Source of the DNA: a virus
Length of the DNA stretch: 40,524 nucleotides
Direction: 5' to 3' (one strand)
IMG/VR virus record: IMGVR_UViG_3300008106_000016
Location: 1 to 40,524 of that record
The notes under the pieces were generated by a model. That model was not told where the DNA came from, made no database searches, and was given only the letters and a program-made list of their open reading frames with translations. The first letter of the stretch is position 1. The number at the start of each line of letters is the position of its first letter. A program made the translations under genes and the position numbers. Below are positions 4,830-40,524 of this stretch, piece after piece.

Positions 4830-7800
4830 CTAAGCCTTAGGCAAATTCCATTCAAACCTCATTGGGGTAAGTATATTGATATCGGACCCTGTACTACCAT
4901 TATCAAGGAAATAGAAATCAATATTATCATCAAGAAGATAGTAATTTTCGCCCCATGTCCATAAATAACCGTTTGAATCAACCCAGATTGGGTTTACGGC
5001 CTCTCCATAGGATATAGTAATCCAAGAAAAAATATTAAATGTGGTTCCCGAAGGAATATTCATTCTAGTGAATAACTTTGTATTTGTACGATTGCCGTTA
5101 CCAAGCAAGCCAGTAAAATTATAACCACTTGCATAGTAATTACCGTCAGTTCCTTTTACAAAAGTTGTTCCAGCTTTCCATCCATTACTAGATGACATTA
5201 TACCTCCATAAGCATCACCATATATTATACTATCGACCATAAGATTGCTAACACTTGATCCATTTTGATATTTTGCTTGAGTCGGTTTAAAAACCGATGT
5301 ACCAGCGTCAATATTAACGCCATTTTGTCCAACATCATTTGTTCCCCAGTTCCATAATGTGCCATCGTTTAACAAAACACTAGCTACGCCAATATTAGCC
5401 CCAAGTAAAGCAAATTGTTTTATTGAAAGATTGACACTTCCATTGACTGAAACCGTCTGAGGAGTTAATGCATTGAAAACATTACTTGTGTTTGTGTTGT
5501 TTATACCAAGTAATCCACGTGTATTAGATCCTGCGGTTTTAATTTGATCTGGTGTTGCTGTTGGATTATTTGTTTCTCTTAACCACATTAATATTGTAGA
5601 ATCAGCTCCGGTGCTGGTGGTGCCGTTAGCGACGTTTTCCCAACCACCGTTGTGACCAATTGCCATTATTCTTTTTGTTGTCGTTGCTGAACCTGTCCAA
5701 GTTAACGTTATATCTGCAGCAGCATTTGCAACATACTGAGTACCATCACCTAATTGACCATAAAAATTATAACCACCGCCAATTATTTTTGTGATCTTAA
5801 CTCCGTTAACTGTACTGCCTGTATCAAATTCAGCTATTATGTTTCCGTAAGTACTACCAAGATTCCAAACGTTTACAGGGTTTGTTCCAATCCACGTTAG
5901 TTCGATAAACGAACTAATTATATCGGTCGTATTGCCATATAAACCAAGCTGAGCATAATTGTTTCGTCCTGCTCCATAAACTTTTCCATCCGTTTTTTGA
6001 AATACAACCCTAGCACTATTATTGCCGTTAAGATCACCATTATTGGATGAATGGCTGAATATTTTTGATACCCCAGTTGCAATTAATTTAGGTTGTGAAT
6101 AGCTTGTTGTATTGCCAAGACCCAAAGCTCCATAATCATTTTTGCCCCAACCCCAGAGGTTACCGTTATCAAATAAAACTAATCCAACGTTACCAACTAA
6201 TGCTACGTCAGTAGCTTTACCTGTTTCCGTGTATAAAGATCCTGCTGTAATTCCTGTGACTCCTTTTCCATTTGGGTTTACAATTACTGATGTATCGTTA
6301 AAAATTACTGACTGTGGTGCTTCATAAAAGGCCTGTCTTTGATTAAAAATACCAAATGAGCTAGTACGACCAGACCCAGGGTAAATTTTGTCCAGTGCAT
6401 CTTTTGCTGAGGTTCTAATTGTATAAACCCTACCACCGTTTGTTAAAACAAGAGTAGTTCCAGAAGTTCCACCAATCATTTTTCTGATTGTGTCGTTATT
6501 AAACGTTGCCAATCCATCACTTAGAGCCTTTTCAGTAACAGCAACATCTTGAGCTATTCCAGAATAAGAATTAGATAATTTAACAATACCTGCTACACTT
6601 GTACTAGCTAAACCTAGCAAAGCAGTAAAAGTTGCTTTTGAAATATTTTTAATTTTTTTTCCAGTTGTATTAGATAAAACTATAAAATCATTAAGAACTC
6701 CATTTGTGATATCACTAGTAACATCGCCACTTAAACCAGCTCCACTGACGATTGGAGCGACTGAGGATTTATAAGTTAATTGACTAGTTGTATTTCCGCT
6801 TGTACCAGCTTTTATTAAATATGTTACTGTTCTACCATCGCTTATTGTACCTGACAGTGCAGGCAATCCATTAGCATTAGTTACAGTAACATATTTACCA
6901 ACATAGCTAGTGGTATTACCAAAACCTATTAAATAGGTTGTTTCAAGATTTGTTTTTGTAGCAACTGCTTGCAATTGAGTATCTGATGTTTTCCAATCAG
7001 CTACACCAACCGCATTTGAATAACAAATATATTTAGTTCCATTAGTAAGAGTCCATTCTCCACCAACGTCCCATCCTTTTGTAATATCGTCATTTACAGT
7101 TGGTATTGTTGATTGATTCAATAAATTTAATTTAGGAAATACAAATGAATCGCCCGTTAAGGAAAATGGTTTAGATAAATTTGTAGTAGCTTGAATTTGA
7201 ACTAAATCAATACCAATGTTATTTTTAAGATAGTGGGGGCAATTACCTGTTTTATAAAGCATTCCAACTTGATTTAAACCAGTAATTAAGTCAACATAGT
7301 TAAAATTTGAATTAGTAATATCTAATTGATTATATTCTATTCCTGATATAGTCTGTTGTGGAGCGGTAGAAATGACGCTCATTATTTCAGAGCAAGCATT
7401 AATTCTTAGTTTTCCGTTAGCGTGAGATAGAATATTAATATATCTTGAGTTTGTAATATCAATAAATGTCCCTATGTTTGCTATTGAATCAATAATAACT
7501 GTGTTATTATTACTGATTGCATAAGTGCCTTTTGGTTTAACAATGTTAGAGTATAAAGTATTTCTTAATAAGAACGTTGTTGTAACTCCAACTGTTAATG
7601 CAGGATCGGATTCAACATTAACATACCCATCGTCACATAATAGTTGCCCATTAAAAGCAGTTTTTAAATATATATTTAAGTCTCCACCATAGGCAAATTG
7701 ATGCACTCCAACACCAGCGGATGGTATATTTTCTATAGTTACCGCTCTTTTACCCCTTATTGTAACTCCTTGAACCTGACATCTTAAAGTCCCATTAAAC

Positions 7801-26977: not shown

Positions 26978-27283
26978 ATGCAAAATTTCTTATATCCTAC
27001 GAGTTTATTACATATACAAACTAGGTCAGTGTTTGAAGGGGGCGTTTTAAGCTACATTGCATATTCAAGATTCAATTATAAAATTAGTGCCTTAGAAAAT
27101 ACACAACCGTTTAAAGTGTTGCAGAGAAGACATTTTAATTATTGCAGTAATAAATCATCACAAATATTAAAAAAAGACACAACAAATTTTTTTACAAAGG
27201 CTGAGATACAAGAATTACAAACGTTGTATTTACAATATACACAAGATATTGATCAACAAAGTAAACAGATTTTAAGAGATTAG
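26978..27283 (+). CDS. Hypothetical protein, 101 aa
   Basis: First gene of the rightward cassette. A soluble, basic protein with an aromatic, Ser-rich N-terminal half and a helical, Gln-rich C-terminal half (KAEIQELQTLYLQYTQDIDQ). No family recognised. The inverted repeat TTTACATAA / TTATGTAAA ends 4 nt before the ATG, so expression may be controlled there. Confidence 0.5.
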   Translation: MQNFLYPTSLLHIQTRSVFEGGVLSYIAYSRFNYKISALENTQPFKVLQRRHFNYCSNKSSQILKKDTTNFFTKAEIQELQTLYLQYTQDIDQQSKQILRD

Positions 27284-27317
27284 TTATTTCAGGCAATATA
27301 GTATTAATGTATATCTT

Positions 27318-27713
27318 ATGAACAATGAAAAAATAAAACTAGTCGATACTAAAAAAGCTCAAAATAAGCTTATGGCAATATGTAAATTACATAAGTTGTA
27401 TTTACATGATATTACACGTCGATTAGATTGTGTAGAATTAGAAATACAATCGATACCTAAACTACTAACAAAAATACTGCCACAAAGCGGAATTCATATT
27501 AAGATTACTATTTATCAAAATCACACTTATGAAATGCAATATAACAGTTATGTTACTTATCACTTAGGTTATGTGAGAAAAAAGTGTGGTGAAACCGAGC
27601 CAACACGTTTATTATTTAAAGATCACAGTCTAAAAACTAAAAAGATAATATCTAATATAGATAATATTACCAAAGATATTGTACAACAAACAATAACCGA
27701 ATTTTATATATGA
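27318..27713 (+). CDS. Hypothetical protein, 131 aa
   Basis: A basic soluble protein with an N-terminal helical part (KKAQNKLMAICKLHKLYLHD) and a central strand pair (GIHIKITIYQNHTYEMQYNS) followed by a Lys-rich helical end. Not recognised. Part of the rightward cassette; 34 nt after the previous gene and 57 nt before the next. Confidence 0.5.
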   Translation: MNNEKIKLVDTKKAQNKLMAICKLHKLYLHDITRRLDCVELEIQSIPKLLTKILPQSGIHIKITIYQNHTYEMQYNSYVTYHLGYVRKKCGETEPTRLLFKDHSLKTKKIISNIDNITKDIVQQTITEFYI

Positions 27714-27770
27714 TCTAAAAAAATAAGTGTATACGGAAATTGAATTGATGTTGATTATTATTAAGTTATT

Positions 27771-28046
27771 ATGAGTGAAAAGAGTTTAGATGAGATGACA
27801 ACCGTAGAGATGGTGGATTTTGTAACAAAACACACATACGAATATCGCAAAATATATGAGGCATCATTTAAGAGTAAAGAAGAGCAAAAAATCCATGAAT
27901 TAGAACTGCAGATTAGCTTTTTTACCAACGTCATAGACTACCCAGAACTTACTAAAACTGAGAGAAAGAAAATAATCAAAAACATAAAGCAAGAAATACA
28001 AATTATTAAACAAGGATTGGCTTTGAAAGAAGCTTTGAAAAATTAA
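27771..28046 (+). CDS. Hypothetical coiled-coil-like protein, 91 aa
   Basis: A highly charged, helical protein (MSEKSLDEMTTVEMVDFVTK; ERKKIIKNIKQEIQIIKQGL) that could form a coiled coil. Family unknown. Its last codons and TAA lie in the 5' end of the 29-nt repeat at 28040-28068, so the repeated segment begins at the gene's 3' end. Confidence 0.5.
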   Translation: MSEKSLDEMTTVEMVDFVTKHTYEYRKIYEASFKSKEEQKIHELELQISFFTNVIDYPELTKTERKKIIKNIKQEIQIIKQGLALKEALKN

Positions 28047-28068
28047 AGTGTTTTGCTAGGGTCAAAAC
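28040..28068 (+). repeat. 29-nt direct repeat, copy 1 (with hairpin)
   Basis: Identical over 29 nt to 32487-32515, and 35 of 36 positions match if extended to the following TCATTT. The core GTTTTGCTAGGGTCAAAAC has a short internal inverted repeat (GTTTTG / CAAAAC). Here the core also pairs with downstream sequence (TAGGGT with ACCCTA at about 28078-28083), giving a larger hairpin without a T-tract. Both copies lie on the strand of the rightward genes, about 180-200 nt upstream of the next start (28246 and 32716), which suggests shared leader or control DNA, or a recombination seam. Confidence 0.75.
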
Positions 28069-28147
28069 ATCATTTGAACCCTATAAAATCTATATATTAC
28101 ATTCTATCGCAAAAAGCATAATAAAATCACTATTCCTGTTTTATTAT

Positions 28148-28175
28148 TTGACAAAGTCAGTTATTATTATATTAT
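28148..28175 (+). promoter_or_regulatory. Upstream sigma70-type promoter (tandem, distal)
   Basis: TTGACA at 28148-28153, a 16-nt spacer, then TATTAT at 28170-28175. It is one base off the consensus -10. It lies just upstream of the perfect promoter at 28180-28208 and points to the gene at 28246. Confidence 0.6.
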
Positions 28176-28179
28176 TTAC

Positions 28180-28208
28180 TTGACAAACACAAATCATTAG
28201 TGTATAAT
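28180..28208 (+). promoter_or_regulatory. Perfect-consensus sigma70 promoter
   Basis: TTGACA at 28180-28185, exactly 17 nt, then TATAAT at 28203-28208, both matching consensus at all six positions. Transcription should begin near 28215, giving a leader of about 30 nt to the ATG at 28246. Host polymerase would read it without phage factors, so the cassette at 28246-29771 is probably expressed in the lysogen or very early. Confidence 0.85.
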
Positions 28209-28245
28209 TAAAATGTAGTTAAAATTATTATATTGTTATATTTGT

Positions 28246-28731
28246 ATGAACACAACTTCTAAAAACGATTGTACTAGATTAAAGGAAATATTAGAGTTTG
28301 CAAAAACCGATCTTGAAATTACTCTTTCCGATCCCAATAATCCTTCTTATATTGATCCGATTGATAGATTTTATCATTTTAAAAACAACAACGATGAGGA
28401 CGCTAAAAGACTGAAAAAGAAAATAGGTGAAAAAAATTGGGAGACAGTGAGTCACCACTATTTTGATGATAATGTAAAGATCAATGCTGGCGATTGTGCG
28501 AAAAAAGGTTACTGGGAAATAAAAGAACTTAGAGGATTATTAGTATGTTATGTCACCTCTGAAATAACGGATCAAAAACTTTTAGATTATTATAATCAAG
28601 CTAAGACTCAACTTACTTCTACAGGATTATATTGGGGAGTGATTGCGATTGGAATTATAGAAGACCTTCTCTTCAACGATTCCGTTACTAAAAGACACTA
28701 TTATTTTATTATAGATAACACCAAAAACTAA
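28246..28731 (+). CDS. Hypothetical accessory protein behind a strong promoter
   Basis: 161 residues: an acidic and Asn-rich N-terminal half (LSDPNNPSYIDPIDRFYHF, a KKKIGEKNWETVSHHYF segment), then a beta/alpha C-terminal half with LRGLLVCYVTSEI and LYWGVIAIGIIEDLLF. The late hydrophobic segment is short and more like a buried strand-helix than a membrane pass. No family recognised. Placement behind tandem sigma70 promoters marks it as a moron-type gene, perhaps for host fitness, immunity or defence. Confidence 0.55.
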   Translation: MNTTSKNDCTRLKEILEFAKTDLEITLSDPNNPSYIDPIDRFYHFKNNNDEDAKRLKKKIGEKNWETVSHHYFDDNVKINAGDCAKKGYWEIKELRGLLVCYVTSEITDQKLLDYYNQAKTQLTSTGLYWGVIAIGIIEDLLFNDSVTKRHYYFIIDNTKN

Positions 28732-28753
28732 ATTTTCCGTTATATTATCATAT

Positions 28754-29044
28754 ATGTCAAACATTAAACCATTACAAATTCGCAATAAGAAAAATGAACT
28801 ATACTTGGACTCATATTCGCAATGGAACATTAGGTATACACACTTAAGGCGACATAGTGATGTATATCGAGACGCACAACGAGATTGTTACAGTGCATCT
28901 CAGTTCAGACTGACGAACAAGGGCATAGAGAGTCGTGTCGATGGAGAAAATTATTATGTTATCGGAAACATCTTTGAAGAATATTCTAAGAAGTTAAGAC
29001 AGCAAGAGAATAGATTTGATGAGTTTTATAGTTTATTTAGTTAA
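28754..29044 (+). CDS. Hypothetical protein, 96 aa
   Basis: A strongly charged, Arg- and Tyr-rich soluble protein (RYTHLRRHSDVYRDAQRDCY; FEEYSKKLRQQENRFDEFYS). Not recognised. It lies 22 nt after the previous gene in the cassette driven from 28180. Its 3' end is 7 nt before the next ATG. Confidence 0.5.
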   Translation: MSNIKPLQIRNKKNELYLDSYSQWNIRYTHLRRHSDVYRDAQRDCYSASQFRLTNKGIESRVDGENYYVIGNIFEEYSKKLRQQENRFDEFYSLFS

Positions 29045-29051
29045 TTTATAT

Positions 29052-29666
29052 ATGAAAGAAGTATTACATATGAAAGAAAAATTATTTAAGATAGATAATG
29101 ACAATCTTACTAATTTGGTAGAGGCTCTAAAAAATTGGCATTTTCGACATATTTGGACAACCATTATTATTACTCGCCACTTTCCAAGTTTTTTAGTAAA
29201 GAAAGAGGTAAGTATTACAATAGAAACAAAACTTCAAGAAGCAATGGCTCTAGAGAGTTTCTATCCCGATACTCCATCTATTTGCCTTGATGGTCATGGT
29301 CATGGGTGTTGTAATATTCATCAGATACAACAATGCCTTGAGAATAGTACGAATTTTTCATTCAAATTTGCGCTGAGACAGATATCACGTATTGCAAATG
29401 AACTAATTGAAAATAAACCAGAGCATATGACACGTATATTTTTCGGTCGTCCCATTACTCTTGAGGATATTTTATCTAATCTTGGCACTGGTCGCTTAAA
29501 GGTGACTATGGACAACACAAAGCTTTGTGTTGAAAATCTAGACAAAGATAATACCGTGTTTATAATATTTTTTTGGGAATTAGGCAAACCACTTCATTGT
29601 CAAAGTCGATCCACTTGGGAAAATATAGCACGCATAATTTATACTAATTTAGAAGAACGAGATTAA
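29052..29666 (+). CDS. Hypothetical protein with His/Cys cluster
   Basis: The start at 29052 follows TTAATTTATAT and avoids overlap; the alternative ATG 29016 lies inside the previous gene. 204 residues. The notable feature is ICLDGHGHGCCNIHQIQQC (about 80-98), with three His and four Cys in a short stretch that could bind metal. The rest is mixed alpha/beta (FRHIWTTIIITRHFPSFL). Family unknown. It is the last intact gene of the rightward cassette. Confidence 0.5.
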   Translation: MKEVLHMKEKLFKIDNDNLTNLVEALKNWHFRHIWTTIIITRHFPSFLVKKEVSITIETKLQEAMALESFYPDTPSICLDGHGHGCCNIHQIQQCLENSTNFSFKFALRQISRIANELIENKPEHMTRIFFGRPITLEDILSNLGTGRLKVTMDNTKLCVENLDKDNTVFIIFFWELGKPLHCQSRSTWENIARIIYTNLEERD

Positions 29667-32486: not shown

Positions 32487-32515
32487 AAATTAAAGTGTTT
32501 TGCTAGGGTCAAAAC
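32487..32515 (+). repeat. 29-nt direct repeat, copy 2
   Basis: Identical over 29 nt to 28040-28068. The core GTTTTGCTAGGGTCAAAAC also has an imperfect inverted partner about 100 nt downstream (ACCCTAGGCAAAC, 11 of 13 positions complementary), so this copy could bound a small element of about 116 nt. It lies 229 nt upstream of the BRO-N remnant on the same strand. Confidence 0.75.
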
Positions 32516-32634
32516 CTCATTTTACGCTTATTTTACAGGGGTTCATTTTTTTGAGTATTTTCAAACAATACTTGACTTTTGTAATTTGTTAATTTAAAAA
32601 AACCCTAGGCAAACAAAAAAGGTTTACAAAATTA

Positions 32635-36412: not shown

Positions 36413-37966
36413 CTAATCAAATAAAAAGTCAATATTGTCATCCGCAAGTTTATTTTTACATTTTGATTGCTTTGATACTTCAGACCAATATTTTACTCTT
36501 TCCTCTGCGATTTTTACATATTCAGATTTTAATTCTAAACCTATATACTTTCTATTCGTTAAAACAGCAGAAATGCACGTAGTTCCACTTCCACAGTAAG
36601 GATCTAGTATAATGTCATTTTCAGCACTAAACATTGTTATAAGGTAATTAAACAGGGCAATTGGTTTAACAGTGCAGTGGGTATTACTGACTGCAAAATT
36701 TGGGTTTTTATTATCAGTAAACTGACCATTTGTGGATTTTTGCATTTGTTTACTTAGAACACTCTCTAATCCAATATTTTTTTCATTAGTGCTAGGCTTA
36801 CTTGTAAATAAAAACGGACTTGTTTTTTCAGCGTCTTGTTGTAATTCTAGTGTTTTTTTTGATAGTTTGTAAAGTTCGGGGTGGTGTTTTTTAGTCCAAG
36901 AATCTAGTGAAAAATAACGTGAGAAGTCGGCTTGATCTTGATAGTGAAAACCACTGTTAATATTTGTAGTAATTTTAGTTGCGTTAGTGTTATTTGAAGT
37001 TTTAAAATTATGTTCGTTAGGTCCAACGCTTTTAATATTTTTACCAACATCTACACAATCATCACTAACCAATAAATTTGGAGGAAAGCGACCTTGACTT
37101 GAAAAATTTCCCTTATCGGGTAAATTAAAATTATTACCCCCTATACCTATTATACTAGTCTTACCTTGATTTGTTTTGTATAATGCCATATTTGGTCTGT
37201 AATTTGGTTCATTTTCTAAATTTTCAATTGGTATTCTTACCTTATCTATGTCAATTCCACCACTGGCATTCTTGGTATAAAAACATAAATCTTCCTCTTT
37301 TATACCATTATCAAGTAATGCTTTGCATTCATTATACCACGTTAGGGCTTGTTGGTACTTAGCTCCTTGAAATGGTTTTTGAGCCACAACAATTACTTCT
37401 ACGGCTGGTTTAAGTGAATTTGAGTACAGACCGTCGCAGTATATTGCTTCTTTTGTTAAAGGTTCTGTAATATCAAAATTATTACCAAAGTTACCAACAC
37501 TTGTAAAATTAGCATTATCTCTATTTCTTTTATTAACATTAATTCCAGTAATATTACGTACAACATTAAAATACTTATCAATGCTTTTACTATATGAACT
37601 TGCCTTTGGAAAACCACTAGTATACGCCCAGTAGATAGGGCTAAAATTAATATCAAAACCCGCTTTTAACAGCCTATAATACAAAACCGCTTGTAAATCC
37701 TGTCTTGGTGTAAATGTGGTTATAAAATAAGATCCTGTTTTTAATACTCTATGACACTCTTTTAAAAAATCAACAGTGGGAAGAATCCATTTTTTATTTA
37801 AAAAATCACCTTTATTATTCAGGCCTTCCTGTATCATTTTTAGAGCGTCTACGTCATTAAGAGCGTAAGGTATGTCTGTAAGTGTAAGTGATATTGAATT
37901 ATCTGGTAATGTCTTTAAAAAGTCAATATTATCTATATTATAAATTTTATTTACTTTCTCTTGCAT
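36413..37966 (-). CDS. DNA N6-adenine/N4-cytosine methyltransferase (beta class order)
   Basis: 517 residues. The catalytic motif comes first (LTDIPYALND, about 28-37, a DIPY version of D/N-PP-Y), and the AdoMet motif last: IILDPYCGSGTTCISAVLTN (about 460-480), followed by YIGLEL. This order is the beta class. The long middle, with NVNKRNRDNANFTSVGNFGN and RFPPNLLVSDDC, holds the target recognition region and is larger than usual. The first nine codons recur behind dnaN at 38922-38981. Probably protects phage DNA or alters regulation; no partner nuclease in the window. Confidence 0.8.
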   Translation of the reverse strand: MQEKVNKIYNIDNIDFLKTLPDNSISLTLTDIPYALNDVDALKMIQEGLNNKGDFLNKKWILPTVDFLKECHRVLKTGSYFITTFTPRQDLQAVLYYRLLKAGFDINFSPIYWAYTSGFPKASSYSKSIDKYFNVVRNITGINVNKRNRDNANFTSVGNFGNNFDITEPLTKEAIYCDGLYSNSLKPAVEVIVVAQKPFQGAKYQQALTWYNECKALLDNGIKEEDLCFYTKNASGGIDIDKVRIPIENLENEPNYRPNMALYKTNQGKTSIIGIGGNNFNLPDKGNFSSQGRFPPNLLVSDDCVDVGKNIKSVGPNEHNFKTSNNTNATKITTNINSGFHYQDQADFSRYFSLDSWTKKHHPELYKLSKKTLELQQDAEKTSPFLFTSKPSTNEKNIGLESVLSKQMQKSTNGQFTDNKNPNFAVSNTHCTVKPIALFNYLITMFSAENDIILDPYCGSGTTCISAVLTNRKYIGLELKSEYVKIAEERVKYWSEVSKQSKCKNKLADDNIDFLFD

Positions 37967-37967
37967 A
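37940..37967. repeat. 28-nt direct repeat, copy at methyltransferase start
   Basis: ATAAATTTTATTTACTTT followed by a variable base and TCTTGCATA. It matches 38955-38982 at 27 of 28 positions. On the coding strand it holds the ATG and first nine codons of the methyltransferase (MQEKVNKIY; the other copy reads MQDKVNKIY). The two copies flank the membrane-protein cassette of about 1 kb. Confidence 0.85.
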
Positions 37968-38150
37968 TTTTTTAAAATAAACTATCTTGTTTTTCATCTT
38001 AATTTTTTCAAAAAACTTCATTATATCCTCGTGCTTGGCAACTATCTTTTTCATTGCTTCTTTATCCTTAAGCAGTGGTGGTTTTTTAGGTTGTGAGTTA
38101 GGTTGTTTAGGTTGGAATATTTGTTTATTTTTTAATGGTTTGGATATCAT
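37947..38150 (-). CDS. Small basic protein, 67 aa
   Basis: A Lys- and Pro-rich N-terminal part (KPLKNKQIFQPKQPNSQPKK) followed by a helical part (KKIVAKHEDIMKFFEKIKMK). It overlaps the upstream membrane-protein gene by 26 nt and the methyltransferase start by 20 nt, so it is translationally coupled to both. Unknown family. Its C terminus is encoded by the repeat at the methyltransferase start, so it was probably shaped by the insertion. Confidence 0.5.
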   Translation of the reverse strand: MISKPLKNKQIFQPKQPNSQPKKPPLLKDKEAMKKIVAKHEDIMKFFEKIKMKNKIVYFKKYARESK

Positions 38151-38763
38151 ATATTGTTGCTTCGTTAATAATATCTTTTATTTTAGTGCCATTTATTTGT
38201 AATTGATAATGTTTTTCTTCTTTATGAGCTTTAAAAACGATATCGTCTTTTTTAAAAATATCATTATATAGATAAGCATAAAATTTTTCTCCAGTTTGTA
38301 GTCCATTTACATTTACAACCTCTAAATCAAATCTTGTATATTCGTCTTCATAATCTAATCCATTAATTTTATATAATCCGTCCAATCTTACTGGTATTGT
38401 TCTATCTCTTGTTGATTTTGCTTTTTCTTTAATAACATCTTGCGAGATATATTTATCTTGATATGTTATACCGTCAGTGAAATTCGTAGAATTTTTTATC
38501 ACTTTATCTTTTAAATTATCACTATCCTCTTTAATATATCTAGCTTCTGGAATTTTATTGGCAATTTTATCAATAATTTCTATCCATTTTTTATCTTGCT
38601 CTTTATCTATATAGTGATTGATGGTTTTAGAACCAAAATAACATAGAGCTACAAAACACCCTAAAATTAACAAATGTTTACCTTCCATACGATTAATAAT
38701 AGTTTGCAAAACTTTGACAATCTGGGCTTCTATTTTTGATGACCCCTTAGAAACGCTAACCAC
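38125..38763 (-). CDS. Single-pass membrane protein of the operator-controlled cassette
   Basis: 212 residues from GTG 38763. One transmembrane helix at about 29-48 (HLLILGCFVALCYFGS), then a long hydrophilic domain (about 50-212) with strand-rich segments (VNGLQTGEKFYAYLYNDIF). Topology suggests a C-terminal domain outside the membrane. An in-frame upstream ATG is followed by TAA after two codons (ATG TCA TAA), with GAGG before it, so that start is not usable for this frame. Strong own promoter and operator suggest a lysogeny-expressed protein, for example superinfection exclusion; function not shown. Confidence 0.6.
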   Translation of the reverse strand: MVSVSKGSSKIEAQIVKVLQTIINRMEGKHLLILGCFVALCYFGSKTINHYIDKEQDKKWIEIIDKIANKIPEARYIKEDSDNLKDKVIKNSTNFTDGITYQDKYISQDVIKEKAKSTRDRTIPVRLDGLYKINGLDYEDEYTRFDLEVVNVNGLQTGEKFYAYLYNDIFKKDDIVFKAHKEEKHYQLQINGTKIKDIINEATIYDIQTIKK

Positions 38764-38849
38764 AATTATTTATGACATTTTTCCTCTGTATTGAAAAATA
38801 ACATAAAATCCAAAAGGTTTTTAAAAATTTTCATAACTTTTCTTAGCAC

Positions 38850-38886
38850 TTTAATTTATAACTTACTATGTAAGTTATAAATTAAA
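38850..38886. promoter_or_regulatory. 37-nt perfect palindrome, putative operator
   Basis: TTTAATTTATAACTTAC at 38850-38866 is perfectly complementary to GTAAGTTATAAATTAAA at 38870-38886, with the 3-nt centre TAT. It covers the -10 element and expected transcription start of the promoter at 38874-38902, so a dimeric repressor here would block it. As RNA it would form a 17-bp stem, so a terminator or attenuator is an alternative, but no T-tract follows on the cassette side. Confidence 0.75.
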
Positions 38887-38902
38887 AATTCTACTTTGTC
38901 AA
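38874..38902 (-). promoter_or_regulatory. Strong sigma70-type promoter for the membrane-protein cassette
   Basis: On the minus strand TTGACA (38902-38897), a 17-nt spacer and TATAAC (38879-38874): a perfect -35 and 5 of 6 in the -10. The start would be near 38867, inside the palindrome, giving a leader of about 100 nt before GTG 38763. The leader contains the GAGG and the two-codon ATG TCA TAA minigene at 38778-38770. Confidence 0.75.
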
Positions 38903-38921
38903 GATATTTTTTTATTTTTTT

Positions 38922-38981
38922 TCAAAAATTGGGGGGAATAAGTATATAATTACCATAAATTTTATTTACTTTATCTTGCAT
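38922..38981 (-). pseudogene. 5' remnant of the methyltransferase gene behind dnaN
   Basis: An ATG 4 nt after the dnaN stop opens MQDKVNKIYGNYILIPPNF and ends at TGA. The first nine residues match the methyltransferase start (MQEKVNKIY) with one conservative change, and the DNA is 27/28 identical. After residue nine similarity stops. The ancestral order was probably dnaN directly followed by the methyltransferase, later split by the cassette. Confidence 0.65.
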
Positions 38982-38982
38982 A
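38955..38982. repeat. 28-nt direct repeat, copy downstream of dnaN
   Basis: The partner of 37940-37967 with 27/28 identity. Together the two copies bracket 38.0-38.95 kb, which holds the 67-residue and 212-residue genes, their promoter and the palindrome. Such a bounded unit points to a single insertion or duplication event. Confidence 0.85.
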
Positions 38983-38985
38983 CGA

Positions 38986-40170
38986 TTAAGATATAGACCT
39001 TATCGGCATTACAATTATTTTATAATCTTGTTTTGTGTCTTTACTATCATAAACTGGCAAAAACATAGATGGTCGAGTTGACTCAGTAAACAAAATCCTA
39101 CATTTTTCGGAGTCGATAGCATTTAAAGTATCCACTAAATAACGATAATTATAAGATGTAGTAAATAAATCTTGTGAACTGGACTCACACTGCATATTGT
39201 ACTTTGCCATGCCAATATCGGAACCAAGATTTTTTACACTTCTATTGGCTTCAATTTCAAGAGTATTCTGTAAAAAATTTAATTTAACAATATTATATGC
39301 AGAACCAGAAAAAATAGCCGATACATTGTTGATAGCTTTTTGTAGTTCGGATTTGTAGAGAGTAACTTCAAAGTTTGAATTTTGAGGAATAACTCTTTGA
39401 TAGTTAGGAAACTCACCCTCTATTAAATTAGAAACAACGCTGCAACCACCAAAACTAAACTTTATTTTTGTTTTGTTAATTTCAACTAAAATCTTTTCAT
39501 CCTTAGCCATGGTAAGAATATCTACAACTTTTTGAATCGACCTTCTTGGTAAAATAATTTGCTGAATATCACCGCTTGAATCAAAGTCAAGAGATTGAAT
39601 TGATAGTCTATGGGAATCAGTACTTACAATATTAAAAGATTTTTTATCTTGGGCGTTTTTTCCGTCAAGATCAAATAGAATTCCGTTAATATAAAACCTT
39701 GCCTCATCAGTGCAAACCGAAAACTCGACTCTCTTTATTGCACCAAGAATAATGGAGGCCTTAATTGAAAAACTTGTTAGGTATTCAAGATTTCGTGGAG
39801 ATGGATAGGAGCTTGCCGGTATACAATCAAGCAAAAACTTGGATTTTGATGCCTTAACAACAAAAACCTCTTTATCCTTTGTCTTTAAAAATTTACACGA
39901 AAGACTCTCCTGCGATGTTTTTTTCAATATCTCGTTTAATTTTATAGCAGGAACAGTTGTTGTAAATGGAGCTGATTTTGATTGAATCAAACTTGCATCT
40001 ATAGTTTGAAGACAAAAAATATCAGTATTTGTTGTCTCAAGCTTAAGACCAGAGCTGTCAAAAGTAAGTTTTATATTTTGTAAAACAGGAGATGCTGATT
40101 GAGTTTTTGAAACTATTCCCGAAACAAAAGCAACGGCCTTATTTAAAACGTGACCTTCAATTTTAAACAT
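38986..40170 (-). CDS. dnaN: DNA polymerase III beta sliding clamp
   Basis: 394 residues, near the family length, with all three clamp domains and no gap. Recognisable segments: NKAVAFVSGIVSKTQSASPV followed by LQNI at the start, VSTDSHRLSIQSL (about 191-203, the TDgHRL motif), FPNYQRVIPQN (about 262-272, usual EFPdYrrViP), and the C-terminal IIVMPIRSIS (usual vMPMRl). It is encoded in line with head genes, so it belongs to the phage or a phage-host hybrid. It could support replication or, as T4 gp45 does, late transcription; the latter is inference. Confidence 0.85.
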   Translation of the reverse strand: MFKIEGHVLNKAVAFVSGIVSKTQSASPVLQNIKLTFDSSGLKLETTNTDIFCLQTIDASLIQSKSAPFTTTVPAIKLNEILKKTSQESLSCKFLKTKDKEVFVVKASKSKFLLDCIPASSYPSPRNLEYLTSFSIKASIILGAIKRVEFSVCTDEARFYINGILFDLDGKNAQDKKSFNIVSTDSHRLSIQSLDFDSSGDIQQIILPRRSIQKVVDILTMAKDEKILVEINKTKIKFSFGGCSVVSNLIEGEFPNYQRVIPQNSNFEVTLYKSELQKAINNVSAIFSGSAYNIVKLNFLQNTLEIEANRSVKNLGSDIGMAKYNMQCESSSQDLFTTSYNYRYLVDTLNAIDSEKCRILFTESTRPSMFLPVYDSKDTKQDYKIIVMPIRSIS

Positions 40171-40200
40171 ATAAACCCAAAATAAATTAAAATAATTAAA

Positions 40201-40485
40201 TCACCAATCTTTACCAAACAATTTTTTTGCATCTTTTGTCATTATTTTTGCCATAAGTGCATATTGCTCTTTTACAATTACAGTGTTGTTGCAATTTTGC
40301 GACTCACATTTGTTGTTTGTTATTGCATTTCTATAGTCATCCCCATATTTAGCTACATTCTTTTTCTCTTTAATAGCCATCTTAGTGAGATCTTTATAAA
40401 ACATCATCATTAGTTGCTGTTCTGTTTCTAAGTTACGGCATTTATAACACCAGTAAAGATGTTTTAAATTGCGAAATTTTTTCAT
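40201..40485 (-). CDS. Small zinc-ribbon-like protein
   Basis: 94 residues, basic. Cys13-x2-Cys16 (WCYKC) and Cys60-x4-Cys65 (KCESQNC) could bind one zinc. The middle is helical (LMMMFYKDLTKMAIKEKKNV). No named family. It is upstream of dnaN on the same strand with a gap of 30 nt, so likely co-transcribed. Possibly a nucleic-acid-binding or transcription factor, not shown. Confidence 0.5.
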   Translation of the reverse strand: MKKFRNLKHLYWCYKCRNLETEQQLMMMFYKDLTKMAIKEKKNVAKYGDDYRNAITNNKCESQNCNNTVIVKEQYALMAKIMTKDAKKLFGKDW

Positions 40486-40524
40486 TTTATAATAAAATAA
40501 ATAATACTACTATAGTATAAACAT

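What the first reader, a model, noticed from the sequence alone, without database searches (positions are those of the whole stretch)
37940..38985. About 1 kb cassette between dnaN and the methyltransferase, bounded by a 28-nt repeat that duplicates the methyltransferase start
37940-37967 and 38955-38982 match at 27 of 28 positions. Both hold an ATG and the codons for MQ(E/D)KVNKIY. The copy behind dnaN runs only 19 codons. Between them lie a membrane protein, a small basic protein, a strong promoter and a perfect palindrome. This looks like a self-contained regulated unit inserted at a start codon, keeping the methyltransferase intact. Such a unit could be a mobile moron for exclusion or immunity.
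Basis: partly seen in the sequence, partly recalled or inferred. Interest (0 to 1): 0.72.

Follow-up and report, generated by a model that had tools for sequence, protein, structure and literature searches.

The report
Truncated prophage accessory gene spliced in
A 1-kb block holding a short relative of a poorly known prophage membrane protein, often encoded beside phage repressor genes, sits between two genes of an uncultured phage, and a scrap of the interrupted gene's start was left behind, which suggests it was spliced in by recombination.

Summary
The 28-nt repeat (27/28) occurs only twice in the window and never in shuffles; promoter, 17-bp-arm palindrome, one-helix membrane protein and small basic ORF are all present. 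The membrane protein is a member of phrog_6191, a family with no Pfam, NCBIfam or PADLOC model. Relatives behave as prophage accessory genes ('morons'): in 11 distinct phages the gene lies directly behind, and co-directional with, a CI- or Cro/C1-type regulator gene, the position of rexAB in lambda and bstA in BTP1; in others it sits in tail-gene moron slots, and in Proteus prophages a 2-kb block 99% identical is found in unrelated flanks. The window copy lacks the family's first ~91 residues. A distant phage has dnaN and the methyltransferase directly adjacent. Best reading: modular recombination put the unit in the dnaN-methyltransferase junction and left the first nine codons of the resident methyltransferase behind dnaN. 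Exclusion/immunity is the likeliest function, inferred from position only. The unit is not self-contained (no terminator; it overlaps the methyltransferase start). No close relative was found in the collections, so the empty-site test could not be done.

The parts
38986..40170 (-). dnaN, sliding clamp (beta subunit) of DNA polymerase III; left neighbour
   Evidence: phrog_947 E 4.8e-63, three Pfam DNA_pol3_beta domains
38955..38982 (-). repeat copy 1, directly behind dnaN; reads T + codons 1-9 of the methyltransferase (D at codon 3)
38922..38981 (-). 19-codon remnant ORF MQDKVNKIYGNYILIPPNF*
38874..38902 (-). sigma-70-like promoter TTGACA-N17-TATAAC with an A-tract just upstream
38850..38886 (-). 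perfect palindrome, 17-nt arms, 3-nt centre, covering the -10 box: likely repressor operator; centre TTAC-N3-GTAA
38770..38786 (-). Shine-Dalgarno GAGGA and mini-ORF ATG TCA TAA, in frame with the membrane protein
   Evidence: the other 36 starts examined in this phage have no SD of 4 nt or more
38125..38763 (-). membrane protein (212 aa from GTG), short member of phrog_6191: one hydrophobic helix plus C-terminal beta domain, family N-terminal ~91 aa absent
37947..38150 (-). 67-aa basic ORF (20 K/R, 6 D/E), overlaps the membrane gene by 26 nt and the methyltransferase start by 20 nt; no homologue found
37940..37967 (-). repeat copy 2 = T + codons 1-9 of the intact methyltransferase
36413..37966 (-). 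intact N4/N6 DNA methyltransferase, right neighbour
   Evidence: Pfam N6_N4_Mtase 1.5e-26, phrog_67 1.3e-46

Best explanation
The block is a moron-type accessory module: a strong promoter with a palindromic operator over its -10 box, a short membrane-anchored phrog_6191 protein and a small basic ORF. Recombination placed it in the dnaN-methyltransferase junction. The resident methyltransferase was cut after codon 9; that stub is the left repeat. The intact methyltransferase start came in with, or was restored by, the right side of the exchange. So the repeat is homology between two allelic gene starts, not a transposon target duplication. The promoter drives membrane protein, basic ORF and then methyltransferase, and is probably shut by a dimeric repressor. 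The likely role of the protein is to protect the infected or lysogenic cell from other phages (superinfection exclusion or immunity), as its position in relatives suggests. Shown: repeat, promoter and palindrome sequence, family membership, family context, missing N-terminus. Inferred: insertion direction and mechanism, repression, exclusion role.
For: Unique 27/28 repeat, none in shuffles. Left copy starts 4 nt after the dnaN stop, an operon-like junction; a distant phage, L032, has dnaN and methyltransferase 2 nt apart with nothing between. phrog_6191 hits at 9e-24 over model 97-336; all nine residues invariant in the 19-sequence alignment are kept in the part present. Family directly 3' of and co-directional with a CI/S24 or Cro/C1-type regulator gene in 11 distinct loci: L096, L097, L098, L100, L102, L106, L108, L120, Moraxella Mcat17, Escherichia phi458 and L118. 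Same family between tail genes I and J (L094, L095) and before a tape measure (Proteus); a 2.0-kb block at about 99% identity in unrelated Proteus flanks ends just past an intrinsic terminator. The block is AT-rich for this window (25% G+C against 30%), and its only clear SD contrasts with none at 36 other starts. rexAB and bstA occupy the position behind cI (PMC7067206, PMC8585504).
Against: No close relative with an empty or filled site; L032 is a single, distant phage. Codon preference of the membrane gene is like that of native genes, so it is not a recent foreign arrival. No terminator. The protein lacks the family N-terminus, and an in-frame TAA follows the SD-ATG. No repressor or integrase was recognised in the window, so a lysogenic role is not evident. 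No functional data on phrog_6191 were found.
Confidence: 0.5

Rival explanations
1. Deletion remnant: two tandem methyltransferase genes once lay behind dnaN, one before and one after the membrane gene; the first was deleted down to its first nine codons. Nothing was inserted.
For: The left copy is exactly a gene start (T-ATG, nine codons) in an operon-like place behind dnaN; orphan methyltransferases are common in phages, and one phrog_6191 gene lies next to a methyltransferase gene (L116).
Against: Needs two nearly identical genes (27/28) and then a precise loss; no phage with two such genes was seen; L032 has a single methyltransferase behind dnaN.
Confidence: 0.2
2. Decaying cassette: the membrane gene is a pseudogene fragment carried along, with its N-terminal domain lost and a nonsense codon after the start; the region has no present function.
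For: About 91 N-terminal residues missing and not found elsewhere in the window; homology starts immediately after an in-frame TAA two codons behind an SD-ATG.
Against: The remaining 212 codons are open in very AT-rich DNA, keep all family-invariant residues present and show native-like codon preference; promoter and operator look intact.
Confidence: 0.2
3. The repeat is a functional element, such as a binding site through which the methyltransferase or another protein controls both promoters or starts.
For: Near-identity of 28 nt; DNA methyltransferases often control their own synthesis (general knowledge).
Against: The match follows the coding frame and begins 1 nt before the ATG; it is not palindromic and occurs nowhere else in the window.
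Confidence: 0.08
4. A transposon- or homing-like element inserted with a 28-bp target-site duplication.
For: A direct repeat flanks the unit on both sides.
Against: No transposase, recombinase or nuclease recognised in the unit; 28 bp is unusual for a target duplication; the repeat edge falls on the start codon.
Confidence: 0.04

Closest known systems
phrog_6191 (uncharacterised phage protein family; full-length members in Syntrophotalea, Geobacter, Pseudomonas, Proteus, Moraxella and Escherichia elements)
   Same: Sequence family (E 9e-24), GSS motif, hydrophobic helix, charged linker, C-terminal beta domain that resembles an OB fold weakly in the model of a full-length member
   Different: Window copy lacks the N-terminal ~91 residues, is not beside a recognised repressor and lies between dnaN and a methyltransferase
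lambda rexAB and BTP1 bstA (exclusion/defence genes behind cI)
   Same: Relatives of the window protein occupy the same place behind cI in lambdoid phi458 and other prophages
   Different: No relation by family search (no PADLOC match for the window protein); the window copy itself is not behind a repressor and its action is untested
Phage morons in the sense of Juhala et al. 2000 (for example lom, bor, HK97 gp15)
   Same: Accessory gene with its own promoter between two core genes
   Different: No terminator; end overlaps the next gene; flanked by a duplicated gene start

Membership tests
phrog_6191 | Profile match over the conserved part | tested here: met
   hmmscan 9.4e-24; six-frame search hits model 97-164 and 181-336
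phrog_6191 | Full-length architecture with N-terminal domain (about 330 aa) | tested here: not met
   Homology starts at family position ~92; the N-terminal domain is nowhere in the six frames of the window
Phage moron | Lies between two genes that are adjacent in relatives | tested here: inconclusive
   dnaN-methyltransferase adjacency seen only in one distant phage, L032; no close relatives
Phage moron | Own promoter | tested here: met
   TTGACA-N17-TATAAC, one of two such sites in 40.5 kb; consensus match only, not an expression test
Phage moron | Own terminator | tested here: not met
   No terminator-like site in 37500-40524; by contrast the Proteus relatives end in one
Phage moron | Deviant base composition | tested here: met
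   25% G+C against 30%, modest; codon preference is native-like
Phage moron | Same gene found at different places in other phages | tested here: met
   (for the family, not for this exact cassette)
Superinfection exclusion or immunity gene | Blocks or reduces infection by other phages | not testable with these tools
   Needs a plating experiment
Superinfection exclusion or immunity gene | Linked to the lysogeny repressor | tested here: not met
   Met by many relatives, but no repressor recognised in this window

The most novel reading that the evidence does not exclude
phrog_6191 is a widespread, undescribed membrane-anchored exclusion family that occupies the rex position of many prophages, and the window shows a stripped-down, operator-controlled form captured by a phage in which no lysogeny genes were recognised, spliced exactly at a gene start so that the interrupted gene was rebuilt.
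Probability: 0.25. Interest if true: 0.62.

Novelty: new variant of a known kind. Interest (0 to 1): 0.42.

Why it matters
It points to an unnamed prophage protein family, absent from Pfam, NCBIfam and PADLOC, that repeatedly sits directly behind phage repressor genes in several genera, where known exclusion genes such as rexAB and bstA lie. That makes a direct test easy in laboratory strains. It also gives a clear case of phage gene mosaicism in which the scar suggests how the module was joined.

Tried and rejected
Single-protein searches of the viral collection with methyltransferase, DnaN, membrane protein and terminase found no relatives; blastn of the junction found nothing; the capsid protein had no match. 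50 phage records holding the best methyltransferase relatives hold no phrog_6191 gene and only two a DnaN; the 80 best DnaN loci have no methyltransferase next to DnaN and no membrane-family gene. The idea that the 27-codon ORF 38766-38849 is a frame-shifted piece of the missing N-terminal domain had no profile support. The palindrome as terminator was rejected (no U-run, none called). Its centre TTAC-N3-GTAA resembles, from memory, a LexA box of Bdellovibrio; no paper in the library confirmed it and four such cores against 1.5 expected are near chance, so it is only a lead. An 18/20 likeness between the dnaN/methyltransferase start and codon 26 of the membrane gene (D5) was judged chance because that stretch codes conserved residues. 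Structure comparison gave only weak OB-fold-like hits for the C-terminal domain. The Fc02 exclusion genes are reported as a 7.9-kDa protein and a reverse-strand gene 10; I judged them a different system without a sequence comparison. Host not determined.

Full report
What is there. The window is a 40.5-kb IMG/VR virus record, 30% G+C, of a contractile-tailed phage: tail sheath, terminase, portal, a ParB-like gene, DNA methyltransferase and DnaN are recognised. The finding lies on the minus strand in the order dnaN, repeat copy 1, promoter/palindrome, membrane protein, basic ORF, repeat copy 2 = methyltransferase start. The repeat is 27/28, the only pair within 3 mismatches in the window, with none in 100 shuffles. 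The left copy begins 4 nt after the dnaN stop; the right copy is the methyltransferase start. The match begins 1 nt before the ATG and ends after codon 9.

Control region. TTGACA-N17-TATAAC with an upstream A-tract is one of only two TTGACA-N15..19-TATAA sites in the window. The other (28180-28207, plus strand) precedes a second group of genes of unknown function that run against the structural genes. The -10 box lies in one arm of a perfect 17-bp-arm palindrome, so a dimeric repressor bound there would block the promoter; this is inference. No terminator was found.

The membrane protein. Pfam has nothing above threshold, but PHROGs gives phrog_6191 at 9e-24. tblastn against plasmids found a Syntrophotalea and a Proteus relative; an alignment seeded from them found 25 viral and 4 genome loci. 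Full-length members have about 330 residues. The window copy starts at family position ~92, one codon after an in-frame TAA that follows GAGGA-AAA-ATG-TCA. None of 36 other starts examined in this phage has a Shine-Dalgarno of 4 nt or more. So the copy is a short form: one hydrophobic helix and the C-terminal domain. All family-invariant residues in the retained part are kept and codon preference matches native genes, so it has probably been under selection since truncation, though decay cannot be excluded.

What the family does. In eight distinct viral or Pseudomonas loci, in Moraxella phage Mcat17 and in lambdoid Escherichia phage phi458, the gene lies directly 3' of a CI/S24 repressor in the same direction; in L118 it overlaps a Cro/C1-type HTH gene; in L107, L119 and the Syntrophotalea plasmid a repressor-type gene lies a few genes upstream. 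In two loci it lies between tail genes I and J; in Proteus it lies before the tape measure or in other contexts. There a 2.0-kb block (4999-7037) is about 99% identical between L110, L109 and L113 with unrelated flanks, and the shared sequence ends just past an intrinsic terminator. The region behind cI is a known site of accessory genes, with rexAB of lambda and bstA of BTP1 as examples (PMC7067206, PMC8585504). Position therefore suggests an exclusion or immunity function; no experiment on this family was found. PADLOC gave only two weak matches (E 0.008 and 0.02) on relatives and none on the window protein; Pfam and NCBIfam gave nothing above cut-off. A sample of 398 proteobacterial genomes holds the family in four (one only weakly, one being the query's own centre), so it is a sparse accessory gene. 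A model of a full-length relative (mean pLDDT 74) has a C-terminal beta domain with weak OB-fold-like matches; the model of the window protein is poor (pLDDT 65).

How the scar arose. If the unit came in by exchange with a donor that carried the methyltransferase behind it, the left copy is the stub of the resident gene and the right copy the donor's gene start; the left edge of the homology then falls at the start codon because upstream sequences differ, as observed, and one mismatch is ordinary allelic divergence. A target-site duplication would make that edge a coincidence. A distant phage (L032) has dnaN and methyltransferase 2 nt apart, which supports an ancestral direct junction, but it is one example and not a close relative. 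The same data also fit loss of a first methyltransferase copy. The decisive comparison with near relatives was not possible.

Verdict. Observation confirmed; moron reading supported at family level; insertion likely but not proven; exclusion role inferred; 'self-contained' not supported.

Noticed in passing
26978-29666, promoter 28180-28207 (+): A second group of plus-strand genes of unknown function between the portal/MuF-type genes and the next structural gene, with a consensus promoter (TTGACA-N17-TATAAT) and another TTGACA site 32 nt upstream; possibly another accessory island.
   Followed up: partly
28040-28084 and 32487-32531: A 45-nt direct repeat (89%) in two non-coding gaps, one upstream of the promoter at 28180, the other between portal and terminase genes.
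   Followed up: no
whole window: None of 36 gene starts has a Shine-Dalgarno match of 4 nt or more; starts lie behind AT-rich stretches. Suggests a host that does not rely on SD; host not identified.
   Followed up: partly
L093, L109-L115: In Proteus prophages the phrog_6191 gene travels with a 123-aa protein with an HECAH motif (phrog_1365, unknown function) as a 2-kb block.
   Followed up: partly
38850-38886: Centre of the palindrome reads TTAC-N3-GTAA, which from memory resembles a LexA box of Bdellovibrio; could mean DNA-damage control. Not confirmed.
   Followed up: partly
L126 3884-4930 (Escherichia phage phi458 Orf11): A phrog_6191 member directly behind cI in a lambdoid coliphage, a convenient laboratory model for the family.
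   Followed up: yes
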